From Thermococcus radiotolerans (GTDB lineage: Archaea > Methanobacteriota_B > Thermococci > Thermococcales > Thermococcaceae): a DNA stretch of 64,000 nucleotides. This document shows positions 1,617 through 55,815 of this stretch, piece after piece (positions within the stretch are counted from its first letter, which is position 1; the number at the start of each line of letters is the position of its first letter). Location: NCBI RefSeq assembly GCF_002214565.1, contig NZ_CP015106.1, positions 930,001 through 994,000 of the forward strand, written 5' to 3'. The notes under the pieces are model-generated. The model saw nothing but the letters and a program-made list of their open reading frames with translations, did not search any database and was not told where the DNA came from. A program made the position numbers and the translations under genes.

Positions 1617-1627
1617 CAACGAAAGAC

Positions 1628-1731
1628 AAGGGGGCTCCGCCCCCTTATCTCTCTGTACTCTCAAACCCCCATAGTGGGGCTACGCCCCACAACCCCGTTT
1701 CTCTTTAAACTACTGGGGGGCTAACGCCCCC
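1628..1731 (+). repeat. Three tandem GC hairpins after tRNA-Leu
   Basis: Three short perfect stem-loops stand in a row: AAGGGGGC-tcc-GCCCCCTT (1628-1646), GTGGGGC-tac-GCCCCAC (1674-1690) and GGGGGC-taac-GCCCCC (1716-1731). All share the pattern GGGGC-T(N)2-3-GCCCC. They separate the tRNA from the palindromic element that starts at 1763 and may act in tRNA 3' processing or transcript ending; this is inference. Confidence 0.6.
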
Positions 1732-1762
1732 ACACCCCCAGAAATTTTCTTGTGCAAAGTTT

Positions 1763-2022
1763 CATCAAAGATTGTAGCGCCTTTTCAAAATTCCGAGTTT
1801 CTCATGTGATTTCTCTCCTTGATGGTGCATTTGGGGGTGGAGAACCTGTGGATTGCTTCTTTTGGTATGGATTTGCTTTTAAATCGACGCCAGAAGGGCG
1901 TCAAGAGAAGTAAACCCCTTGTTAAAGCCGTTTGAGAGTGTTCTCATATAGGAAAGCAGGTTTTATGAGTGTTGGGACAATCCTTGTAGTGGACTTTCTG
2001 TAAGGAGCTACTAACTTTTGGT
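1763..2022 (+). repeat. tRNA-linked palindromic element, copy A
   Basis: This 260-bp imperfect palindrome lies in the noncoding gap 1617-2110. Its centre is GACGCC-agaag-GGCGTC (1886-1902). Going outward, both arms carry GTTCTC at about 45-47 bases (once as GAGAAC on the left) and an end block near 110 bases: GAGCTACTAACTTTTGGT at 2005-2022 and CATCAAAGATTGTAGCGC at 1763-1780, which are inverted relative to each other. AAGTAAACCCC (1908-1918) flanks the centre on the right. It matches copies at 45747 and about 55556. No coding capacity seen. Confidence 0.75.
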
Positions 2023-40824: not shown

Positions 40825-41825
40825 GGCAGAACCTCCTCTATCCTGAGTCCCTCGCGGCTTATCCTCGTTATCATTGGCGTTCCGCCGGCTATCGTTATGG
40901 CGGTTGCAACCTCGCTCTGGTTCTCCGGGGCCAGGGCGTACATGCAGCCGCCACCGCCGGCGCCGGTTATCTTCGCCCCTATCGCTCCGGCAACCCTCGC
41001 GGCGTAGACCAGCTCGCTGAGCTTTTTCGTTGAAACCCCGAGGGCATCTAGGAGGCCGTGGTTGATGTTCATGAGCCGCCCGAGCTGGGCGAAGCGGAGC
41101 TCCTCGTCGAGGTCGGAGGTTATAACGTCGCGGGCCTTCTCGACTATCTTGCCCATCGCAACGAGCACCGGTTCTATGACCTCGGGCATCTCCTCGTAGG
41201 TTCTCCTCACCATGGCCACCAGTTCCTTCGTTGACCCGCTTGAACCGGTGTAACCGACAACAATCGGCAGCTCCATGAAGGGCAGGTGCTCGAAGTCCCC
41301 CTTCTCGTAGTGGATGAAGCCGCCTATGGCAGATACGGTGGGGTCTATACCGCTCGATGCCCCCTGGACGAGGAGCTCGACCTTATGACCAAGCTTTCCT
41401 ATCTCCTCGTTGGTCAGCTCAAGGCCGAGGAGCTTCGAGACTGCTCCGATGGTCGCTACCGCCACGGCGGCGGATGAACCGAGGCCGGCCCCAACGGGAA
41501 TCTGTGACGTTATAGAGACCGTTACACCCTTACCGTTCGCATCGGCTTCCTCTCTAACCAGCTCTATCGCCTGCCGGACGTAGCTGAGAACTTCAGCCGC
41601 CTTTCCGTAGTCGCTCTCAAAGTAAATCTCGTCTTCGGAGAACGAAACGGTAAGGCCCGGAACGCGTATGTCTTTGGCCTCTATCTTTATCGCACCCCTA
41701 TCGTTGAACCCTGCTCTTACGTAGGTTCTGAGGTCTATGGCGGCAGCTATCGCGGGTTTGCCGTAAACGACGCTGTGCTCGCCGAAGAGTATAATTTTAG
41801 CCGGGGCAGATGCCAGAACCCTCAT
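40821..41825 (-). CDS. mvk: mevalonate kinase
   Basis: 334 residues, GHMP kinase with [18 protein letters not shown] (N-terminal), [15 protein letters not shown] (ATP loop) and [14 protein letters not shown]. It phosphorylates mevalonate. The start codon overlaps the hepT stop by 4 bases (ATGA), so its translation depends at least partly on the toxin gene upstream. Feedback by prenyl diphosphates is known for some family members. Confidence 0.96.
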
Positions 41826-42244
41826 CTTTGACCCTCCAGGAATTTTTCAATTAGTTCCACGAACTCGTGAATGTCCTCCAAGTGCTCATGGAGCACTTCA
41901 AAGGCCAGCTCGTCGTTAATTTTTCCGTACCTGTGAACGAGAACATTACGGAAGCCCTTCATAAGTCTAAGCTTATCAGCTATTTCCCTGGAGATTATTC
42001 CGGCACGCATGAGTCCTTCAAAGACGTCCTCCTCCCTTTCGGGCATCGTAAGCCTCAAGTCGGAGTTTATTATCGCACAGATATCAATGACGTTCTGGAT
42101 CGCGAACTCAGTGCGCTTGTAGATTCCGTCCTTAACTATCCCAAGGGACTCAAAAGTTTCAAAATCATCTGGAAGGTTTTCCTCTATCAGCCTGAGGCTC
42201 TCAAGTATCTCCTCGAGTTTGGAACGTATCAACTCGATCCTCAT
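41822..42244 (-). CDS. hepT: HepT-like HEPN ribonuclease toxin
   Basis: 140 residues, all helical, DUF86/HEPN. The RNase motif R-x4-H-x-Y is complete: Arg99, His104, Tyr106 (RNVLVHRY). In studied pairs MntA attaches AMP to this tyrosine and so blocks the toxin. ATG 42244 overlaps the mntA stop (ATGA), and the stop overlaps the mvk start. The frame stays open upstream, but there it is only a shadow of mntA. Confidence 0.9.
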
Positions 42245-42657
42245 TCTATCGCCTCCAGTCCGAGGTAGTCGTAGTAGTAGCGCCTGAAGTCCTCCCACTC
42301 CTTGAGGGTTTCGTAGGCAAGGTCGTAGAGGAAAGTCTCGTCCCTGCAGAAGAGAACCTTTCCCCTGAGGCACTCTTTTTTGAGATAAACCGGAAGGAGC
42401 TGGAAAATCTGGACGTCGTATTTGTCAGATAGGTGTCCAAGAACGAGCTCCCTGAATCTAAAGGCCTCTGTGGGGCTTCCTTCGTAGTAAACGCACAGGT
42501 CTATATCGCTGTCCTTCCTCGCCTCACCACGCGCCTGGGAGCCGAAGAGAATGATGAACTTTACTCTATCCCCACCGAGCTCAAGGATTCTCTCCATGGC
42601 ATCTTCCAGTTTCATGTGTAAAAAATGGGAAAAGCCCCTTATGGCCTTTTCGTTCAC
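42241..42657 (-). CDS. mntA: MntA-like nucleotidyltransferase antitoxin
   Basis: 138 residues from GTG 42657, which overlaps the MEMO1 stop as GTGA; ATG 42615 (MKLEDAMER) is an alternative with no ribosome binding site. The minimal nucleotidyltransferase signature is complete: [19 protein letters not shown]. It should AMPylate the HepT toxin encoded next. Both genes lie within a chain of four 4-base overlaps from MEMO1 to ipk. Confidence 0.88.
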
Positions 42658-45544: not shown

Positions 45545-45746
45545 CACCCAGGTTTTTGTGTTTTTGTTTTGTTGTTTCCCCGAAACGCTTGCAAAGATTT
45601 CTTTTCTCTTATTAACACTCATAGACATCTAAACCATCTAACAGGCGACAACAACTTAAAATCAAAACCTGCCTGAAAATATTATAGAAAAGGCACTTGA
45701 TTTCCCGCCAGTGCTCCTTGGGAAGGAAGCTTTTTCCAAAGGCTTC

Positions 45747-46002
45747 ACCAAAAGTTCGTAGCTCTTCACCCAGAGACTCGTATGAAAGAGATTTTGCTCA
45801 CAAGCCCTCACCTTTTAGAAGAGAACGCATCAGATAAGAACCATGACAGAGGGTTTACTTCCCTTTTGACGCCCTGCGGGCGTCTATCTTAGAGTTAAAC
45901 CAGCCAAAGGGGGCAATTTGGAAAGTTCTCATTCTTAAAGCGGCCATTTGAATATAAATCGCCCAAGAATTTAGCTTTTCAGAAGGGGCTACGAACTTTG
46001 AT
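45747..46002 (-). repeat. tRNA-linked palindromic element, copy B
   Basis: Most complete copy. Centre GACGCCC-tgc-GGGCGTC at 45868-45884, within one base of the midpoint. Ends ACCAAAAGTTCGTAGCTC (45747-45764) and GGGGCTACGAACTTTGAT (45985-46002) are inverted repeats. GGGTTTACTT (45851-45860) faces GAGTTAAACC (45892-45901), and a GAGAAC/GTTCTC pair lies 47-49 bases from the centre. It fills the noncoding gap 45545-46041, 3' of tRNA-Arg(GCG) on the same strand. No gene seen in the gap. Confidence 0.8.
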
Positions 46003-46017
46003 GCATCTCTGACGAGC

Positions 46018-46037
46018 AACTTTGCGCAGGCAAAGTT
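46018..46037 (-). repeat. hairpin just 3' of tRNA-Arg(GCG)
   Basis: AACTTTGC-gcag-GCAAAGTT, a perfect 8-bp stem that starts 4 bases after the tRNA CCA. Related hairpins follow tRNA-Gly (46305) and tRNA-Arg(CCT) (55536). Confidence 0.65.
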
Positions 46038-46041
46038 TCTA

Positions 46042-46119
46042 TGGCGCCCCGGCGGGGATTCGAACCCCGGACCTCGAGGTCCGCAGCCTCGCGCCCTATC
46101 CAGACTAGGCCACCGGGGC
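46042..46119 (-). tRNA. tRNA-Arg(GCG)
   Basis: Acceptor GCCCCGG pairs with CCGGGGC, then G and encoded CCA (46044-46042). The anticodon arm CGAGG-CTGCGGA-CCTCG gives GCG, reading CGC/CGU arginine codons. TATA-like TTTATAAAG on the minus strand at about 46147-46156 is its promoter. Divergent from tRNA-Gly. Confidence 0.93.
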
Positions 46120-46301: not shown

Positions 46302-46304
46302 CAC

Positions 46305-46326
46305 AAACTTTTCTGGAGAAAAGTTT
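46305..46326 (+). repeat. hairpin just 3' of tRNA-Gly(GCC)
   Basis: AAACTTTTC-tgga-GAAAAGTTT, perfect 9-bp stem, followed by GATCAAA. It starts 4 bases after the CCA and nearly repeats the one after tRNA-Arg(CCT). A second, weaker AACCTTTGC/GCGAAGGTT hairpin lies about 90 bases on. No gene seen in 46302-46492. Confidence 0.65.
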
Positions 46327-46492
46327 GATCAAATGTTTCTTACTGCACGACTTATTTTTGCCTTTCGGAGAGAAGAATATTTTTGGTCAACCTTTGCTTG
46401 CGCGAAGGTTGTTCGCCAGCCTTTCCCAAGGCCTGGTCAAGCTTTTCCAAAAGGCCAAAACAAAGAAGAAGGGGTGAGACTGCACAACCTCT

Positions 46493-55450: not shown

Positions 55451-55528
55451 GGACCGGTAGCCTAGCTAGGATAGGGCGGCGGCCTCCTAAGCCGCAGGTC
55501 CGGGGTTCAAATCCCCGCCGGTCCGCCA
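55451..55528 (+). tRNA. tRNA-Arg(CCT)
   Basis: Acceptor GGACCGG pairs with CCGGTCC, then G and CCA (55526-55528). The anticodon arm GCGGC-CTCCTAA-GCCGC gives CCT, reading AGG. No intron. Confidence 0.93.
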
Positions 55529-55535
55529 GCAATAC

Positions 55536-55558
55536 AAACTTTTGCGGGGCAAAAGTTT
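55536..55558 (+). repeat. hairpin just 3' of tRNA-Arg(CCT)
   Basis: AAACTTTTGC-ggg-GCAAAAGTTT, perfect 10-bp stem, followed by GATCAAAA. It starts 8 bases after the tRNA CCA. Same type as at 46305 and 46018. Confidence 0.65.
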
Positions 55559-55815
55559 GATCAAAAGCTCATGGTTCTTCTCAAGGCTCCTGGTTTTGAT
55601 GTGGTTTCCAGCAGATGGATTGTTTAAAAGGAGAACTAACTCAAGTGCTTCTTTAGTGAGGGTTTAACTTTGAGAAAACGCCCAGAGGGCGTTGGAAGGA
55701 AAGTAAAACCCCAAAATTATGATTTACAGGAAATCGTTCTCGTTTAACCTGTGAGGATTCGAATTTAGAAACCGCCTTTGAAGGGAAGTGGTGTAAAGAA
55801 CCACTGATTTTATTT
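55556..55815 (+). repeat. tRNA-linked palindromic element, copy C
   Basis: Centre AACGCCC-aga-GGGCGTT at 55677-55693. GGGTTTAACTT (55660-55670) faces AAAGTAAAACCCC (55700-55712), and GAGAAC/GTTCTC stand 48-50 bases from the centre on both sides. The left end keeps GATCAAAAGCTC (55559-55570); I see no matching right end, so limits on that side are set by symmetry. It lies in the 478-base gap 55529-56006, where no gene is seen. Confidence 0.7.

What the first reader, a model, noticed from the sequence alone, without database searches (positions are those of the whole stretch)
45747..46002. 256-bp palindromic element with matched blocks, linked to tRNA-Arg(GCG)
Seen directly: GACGCCC/GGGCGTC centre, AGTTAAACC against AAGTAAACCC about 17 bases out, GTTCTC 47-49 bases out in both arms, and GCTACGAACTTT ends about 110 bases out in both arms. 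Offsets agree to 1-3 bases. The same plan recurs in two other noncoding gaps 3' of tRNA genes in this window. A random origin is very unlikely. It could be a MITE-like repeat without a transposase, a fossil of head-to-head duplication, or a long double-stranded RNA or DNA cruciform. I know no name for it.
Basis: seen in the sequence. Interest (0 to 1): 0.78.

Follow-up and report, generated by a model that had tools for sequence, protein, structure and literature searches.

The report
Palindromic repeats behind archaeal tRNA genes
A family of roughly 300-base palindromic DNA repeats sits directly behind many tRNA and other stable-RNA genes throughout the heat-loving archaeal genus Thermococcus; copies are swapped, hybridised and lost between species, and their sites are where gene order was seen to change, so they are a good candidate for a so far unnamed mobile, recombination-prone element.

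Summary
The element (about 45722-46039 with its outer hairpins) carries nested inverted block pairs around a dyad near 45876, and its arms match each other far better than shuffled ones. Two more copies in the window and about 20 elsewhere in the genome share the plan: outer hairpin, outer block, mid block, inner block, central 7-bp stem with 3-base loop. They fall into at least four sequence families that change both arms together. Outer blocks lie 245-255 bp apart. Profiles find the family in 57 of 61 genomes of the genus and in none of 9 of another genus. In 42 of 60 best matches a tRNA 3' end faces the core, mostly at a nearly fixed distance; one copy lies beside C/D RNA genes. Mismatches show no strand bias, so pairing looks like DNA symmetry rather than RNA structure. 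Orthologous tRNA genes carry different families, remnants or nothing; halves have been exchanged at the centre; gene-order changes in a 20-kb test cluster at these loci. Best reading: a non-autonomous, recombination-prone DNA repeat dwelling at 3' ends of stable-RNA genes. The mobilising protein is unknown. No description was found in open-access papers.

The parts
45722..45746 (.). distal outer hairpin GAAGGAAGCTTTTTCCAAAGGCTTC
   Evidence: present in orthologues
45743..45764 (.). distal outer block (CTTCACCAAAAGTTCGTAGCTC)
   Evidence: mean conservation 0.93 over 8 species
45821..45826 (.). distal mid block GAGAAC
45851..45863 (.). distal inner block GGGTTTACTTCCC (Q-type arm)
45868..45884 (.). 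central palindrome, 7-bp stem and 3-base loop
45893..45901 (.). tRNA-side inner block AGTTAAACC (P-type arm)
45925..45930 (.). tRNA-side mid block GTTCTC
45988..46003 (.). tRNA-side outer block GCTACGAACTTTGATG
46018..46039 (.). tRNA-side outer hairpin AACTTTGCGCAGGCAAAGTTTC
46042..46119 (-). tRNA-Arg(GCG); its 3' end abuts the element
1741..2022 (.). second copy, 3' of tRNA-Leu(CAA) 1529-1616; centre 1886-1902
55534..55815 (.). third copy, 3' of tRNA-Arg(CCT) 55451-55528; centre 55677-55693
46303..46333 (.). outer hairpin and start of outer block alone, 3' of tRNA-Gly(GCC): a remnant

Best explanation
A genus-wide family of non-autonomous palindromic DNA repeats that occupy the 3' flank of tRNA and other stable-RNA genes. 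Shown: nested symmetric blocks at near-fixed spacing, several families changing both arms together, placement 3' of RNA genes, replacement or loss at orthologous sites, exchange of halves at the centre, and coincidence with gene-order changes. Inferred: the symmetric blocks are binding sites for a dimeric DNA-binding protein or recombinase; the repeats spread by site-specific insertion or by recombination between copies (or between tRNA genes carrying them); recombination between copies contributes to the frequent chromosomal inversions of Thermococcus. Also inferred: the tRNA-side arm is transcribed as read-through and may serve as the tRNA terminator.
For: About 20 copies in the genome, the full-length ones next to stable-RNA genes or other copies. 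57/61 genomes of the genus carry it. 42/60 best matches have a facing tRNA 3' end, median 95 nt from the core. Families differ in both arms together; 17 of 20 pairs change on both sides, 0/500 shuffles. G-T and A-C mismatches balanced. Same tRNA-Arg(CCT) gene: family A here, B-type in G036, D-like in G008, remnants in G018 and G012, none in G027. Recent dispersal: ProTGG and ProCGG right halves 98% identical, G081 ArgCCG against own LysTTT right half 91%. Hybrids: own ThrCGT is C-left and D-right; G096 ThrGGT is C-left with another right half. G001 and G014 carry a centre-to-centre deletion (read by eye). The tRNA-Arg/Gly pair is inverted in G008, G021, G034, G036. Cossu et al. 2017 (PMC5495485) place Thermococcus inversion breakpoints in tRNA gene pairs and could not reproduce the Leu/Thr inversion with the pTN3 integrase.
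Against: No clean empty site with a target-site duplication and no autonomous partner was found. The copy at tRNA-Arg(GCG) is retained in at least 8 species with blocks more conserved than spacers, which is more than a dead repeat would show and hints at function. tRNA genes are integration hot spots by themselves: the 11-kb insertion in G032 holds its own integrase, so linkage to rearrangements is not proof of cause. Only 20 kb was tested for synteny.
Confidence: 0.5

Rival explanations
1. A host element: transcription terminator or insulator behind stable-RNA genes, with the tRNA-side arm ending tRNA transcripts and the symmetric blocks bound by a chromatin protein that shields convergent genes.
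For: 3' placement. The tRNA-side arm is T- and G-skewed (up to 0.43 and 0.51) where control flanks are only weakly so; 31 T4 runs against 6 A4 runs. Blocks conserved at an orthologous locus.
Against: Absent from all 9 genomes of g12 and from complete or near-complete genomes G019 and G003 of the same genus; about half the tRNA genes here lack it; the far arm is not T-skewed inward.
Confidence: 0.25
2. A non-coding RNA, made by co-transcription with the tRNA and folding through the block pairs.
For: Covarying block pairs found without guidance; folding somewhat more stable than shuffles.
Against: Both strands fold about equally well; on the tRNA strand G-T and A-C mismatches are about equal (with the orientation of the two profiles taken into account); spacers vary; no Rfam match.
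Confidence: 0.1
3. Attachment-site debris: flanks shaped by repeated integration and excision of plasmids and viruses at tRNA genes, with no element of its own.
For: tRNA genes are integrase targets (PMC5495485); an integrase-bearing insertion sits at tRNA-Gly in G032.
Against: Uniform length of 245-255 bp between outer blocks, one architecture in several families, also behind a C/D RNA gene; no match in plasmid or phage records (one family tested against each); this genome has no PF16795 integrase.
Confidence: 0.1

Closest known systems
MITEs and other non-autonomous DNA transposons
   Same: Short, gene-less, inverted termini, dispersed families with deletion derivatives
   Different: Nested symmetric block pairs and a central palindrome; tied to 3' ends of stable-RNA genes; no target-site duplication or transposase found
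REP/BIME and GTAG/CGTC-tagged palindromic repeats of bacteria (PMC3733652)
   Same: Intergenic palindromes in many copies
   Different: Those are 20-40 bp units (abstract); here about 300 bp with internal blocks and tRNA linkage
Archaeal integrase attachment sites in tRNA genes (Int-pTN3, PMC5495485)
   Same: tRNA-linked, tied to inversions in Thermococcus
   Different: Those att sites lie within the tRNA gene; these repeats lie after the CCA end
sRk48/sRk52 repeated ncRNAs of Pyrococcus abyssi (PMC3124441)
   Same: Repeated intergenic sequences with covarying stems in Thermococcales
   Different: Described from Pyrococcus with more copies there than in Thermococcus; the present profiles give no match in the nine g12 genomes. 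Sequences were not compared directly

Membership tests
MITE | terminal inverted repeats and no coding capacity | tested here: met
   outer blocks 12/12 complementary; no plausible gene inside
MITE | target-site duplication | tested here: inconclusive
   no clean empty site among orthologues
MITE | related autonomous element supplying transposase | tested here: inconclusive
   unpaired outer ends in this genome look like chance matches; relatives not searched for it
MITE | dispersed recent copies | tested here: met
   near-identical halves at non-orthologous loci
REP/BIME | 20-40 bp palindromic unit | tested here: not met
   outer blocks 245-255 bp apart
REP/BIME | associated RAYT transposase | not tested
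   not searched
structured non-coding RNA | strand-specific excess of G-U over A-C mismatches in stems | tested here: not met
structured non-coding RNA | discrete transcript | not testable with these tools
   no RNA-seq available
integrase attachment site | within or overlapping the tRNA gene | tested here: not met
   starts after the CCA

The most novel reading that the evidence does not exclude
The repeats are dedicated recombination modules: a dimeric host or element-encoded recombinase acts at the central palindrome, exchanging halves between copies behind tRNA genes, and so drives the chromosomal inversions typical of Thermococcus.
Probability: 0.2. Interest if true: 0.85.

Novelty: new variant of a known kind. 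Interest (0 to 1): 0.6.

Why it matters
Thermococcus chromosomes are so rearranged that even close relatives are hard to align, with breakpoints at tRNA genes that the pTN3 integrase explains only in part (PMC5495485). A repeated palindromic element sitting exactly there, with visible exchange of halves at its centre, supplies a concrete substrate that can be tested in genetically tractable archaea. It also shows that much of the intergenic DNA behind tRNA genes in this genus is a repeat family for which I found no annotation.

Tried and rejected
A 64-kb synteny query was too long; 20 kb was used. Rfam gave only tRNA, one C/D RNA and a ribosomal-protein leader in the window and nothing for the RNA-like sequence next to the 649851 copy. 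Plasmid and phage collections: no match. PF16795 integrase does not track the repeats. Bidirectional terminator with T-rich arms read inward from both sides: rejected for the far arm. Long dsRNA: rejected. The per-genome counts overstate copy number, because a palindrome is matched on both strands. Searches of open-access papers for such tRNA-linked repeats in Thermococcus found none; most subscription papers were not available. An SMC or TrmBL2 boundary role was considered from the literature but nothing there names such a sequence.

Full report
WHAT IS THERE. The window lies at 930001-994000 of a 1,868,990-base genome. Downstream of tRNA-Arg(GCG) (46042-46119, minus strand) lies a non-coding stretch with a central palindrome GACGCCC TGC GGGCGTC (45868-45884) and, going outward, an inner block pair (GGGTTTACT / AGTTAAACC), a mid block pair (GAGAAC / GTTCTC), an outer block pair (12 of 12 complementary, 225 bases between the arms) and an outer hairpin on each side. 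Aligning one arm with the reverse complement of the other scores 4.2 standard deviations above shuffled arms, 0 of 2000 reaching it. The blocks match; the spacers between them mostly do not.

COPIES IN THIS GENOME. BLAST with the element finds three other places; reading the 3' flanks of the tRNA genes shows the plan behind about 20 of them. Four families can be told apart by eye: A, centre GACGCCC, mid block GAGAAC, outer block GTAGCTCC; B and C, centre GCGCTCC, mid block GGAATTC or GGATTCAT, outer block GTGATTCC; D, centre GGCGTCC, mid block GTGGTTTA. Within each family both arms carry the same blocks. A pattern for the outer ends finds nine pairs of ends 245-255 bp apart, plus a shortened pair 116 bp apart at tRNA-Cys. 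A pattern for the centre gives 30 places; those with a perfect stem are at tRNA genes, next to other copies, at the C/D RNA sR36, at an intron-containing tRNA-Met read by eye, or (649851) beside an RNA-like sequence that Rfam does not know. The sR36 copy has a second C/D-like sequence on its other side, read by eye.

DISTRIBUTION. Covariance models of the A core (R1) and the B/C core (R2) were built from alignments A1 and A2. R1 has matches in 57 of 61 genomes of the genus, R2 in 56; none of the nine g12 genomes has any, and g13 and g14 have few and weak ones. The genus is taken to be Thermococcus from named relatives. G019 and G003, in the same genus, have none, and the tRNA flanks of g12 genomes and G019 that were read look bare. 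The element is therefore dispensable. Of the 60 best matches fetched, 42 have a tRNA whose 3' end faces the core, at 88-108 nt in all but four; three more (L187, L199, L202) show a split tRNA-Gln end by eye. Only one tRNA faces it with its 5' end, and that one belongs to a pair with the element between two tRNA genes.

DNA OR RNA. RNAalifold finds the three inner block pairs without guidance. On 107 distinct rows 17 of 20 pairs have changes on both sides (0 of 500 shuffles; sliding destroys it); the rows include both strands of palindromes and homologous arms, so this shows maintained symmetry, not RNA as such. If the stems worked as RNA on one strand, G-T mismatches should exceed A-C. In the strong R1 rows, which mostly read on the tRNA strand, they are 21 against 29. 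In the three clear helices of R2, which mostly reads on the opposite strand, they are 10 against 21 by my count from the same table, so on the tRNA strand the sum is about 42 against 39. Folding energies of both strands are lower than shuffles to a similar degree. I conclude that symmetry is kept at DNA level.

TRANSCRIPTION. In 36 distinct flanks with the element, the arm next to the tRNA is rich in T and G on the tRNA strand (T skew to 0.43, G skew to 0.51), falling off towards the centre; 83 flanks without a central hairpin show only a weak T skew. This fits read-through from the tRNA gene or a terminator there, whichever family is present.

CONSERVATION AND TURNOVER. The A copy at tRNA-Arg(GCG) is found in at least eight species; block columns average 0.89 conservation against 0.72 for spacers, and 1 of 269 circular shifts does as well. 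Yet the same gene carries other families, remnants or nothing in other species, and G001 and G014 show what reads as a deletion joining the A centre to the next centre. At tRNA-Arg(CCT), one finds A here, a B-type element in G036, a D-like one in G008, remnants in G018 and G012, none in G027, and unrelated flank in G032, G013 and G001. Copies at different tRNA genes can be near-identical in one half: ProTGG and ProCGG right halves 98%, left 87%. Own LysTTT is 98% identical to G013 LysTTT in the right half, above most coding DNA of the tested region. Clear hybrids are own ThrCGT (C left, D right) and G096 ThrGGT (C left, another right half). Halves thus have separate histories with the junction near the centre.

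REARRANGEMENTS. In a 20-kb query against eight genomes, loss of collinearity or inversion occurs at the two element-bearing tRNA loci (ArgCCT: G032, G013, G001, where the downstream genes were not found; Arg/Gly pair inverted: G008, G036, also G021 and G034), while elsewhere only gaps of about gene size are seen. The 11-kb insertion in G032 at tRNA-Gly holds an integrase, so it is probably an ordinary integration. Cossu et al. (PMC5495485) found inversion breakpoints in tRNA gene pairs; their integrase recombined Leu with Leu but not Leu with Thr. The repeats could supply the missing homology; this is inference.

JUDGEMENT. Presence, architecture, placement and turnover are shown. Mobility by an unknown protein, and a causal role in inversions, are inferred. 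A host function as terminator or insulator remains a serious rival, or a secondary use. No published name was found in the open-access library.

Noticed in passing
window 1617-1740: A second, strongly conserved repeat (CAACGAAAGACAAGGGGGCTCCGCCCCCTTATCTCTCTGTACTCTCAAACCCCC..., roughly 120-170 bp) starts right after the CCA of tRNA-Leu(CAA); also behind LeuTAG, ArgCCG, ThrGGT, ProCGG here and ArgTCT in G110 and G116.
   Followed up: partly
L060 about 1300-1360 (genome near 649.7 kb): RNA-like sequence GGGTTGCGATGACGTCGGGACCCCCAGGGGGGCGACA...CCCCCC beside a D copy, also in G002 (L203); no Rfam match; perhaps an H/ACA guide RNA.
   Followed up: partly
window 41822-42657: Two small genes that look like a HEPN / nucleotidyltransferase toxin-antitoxin pair; relatives lack matching DNA in this interval.
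   Followed up: no
G032:C1:1099620-1110649: 11-kb insertion at tRNA-Gly(GCC) holding a PF16795 integrase: probably an integrated element.
   Followed up: no
window 46303-46480: Flank of tRNA-Gly(GCC) has further short hairpins (e.g. CAACCTTTGCTTGCGCGAAGGTTG), probably remnants of repeats.
   Followed up: no
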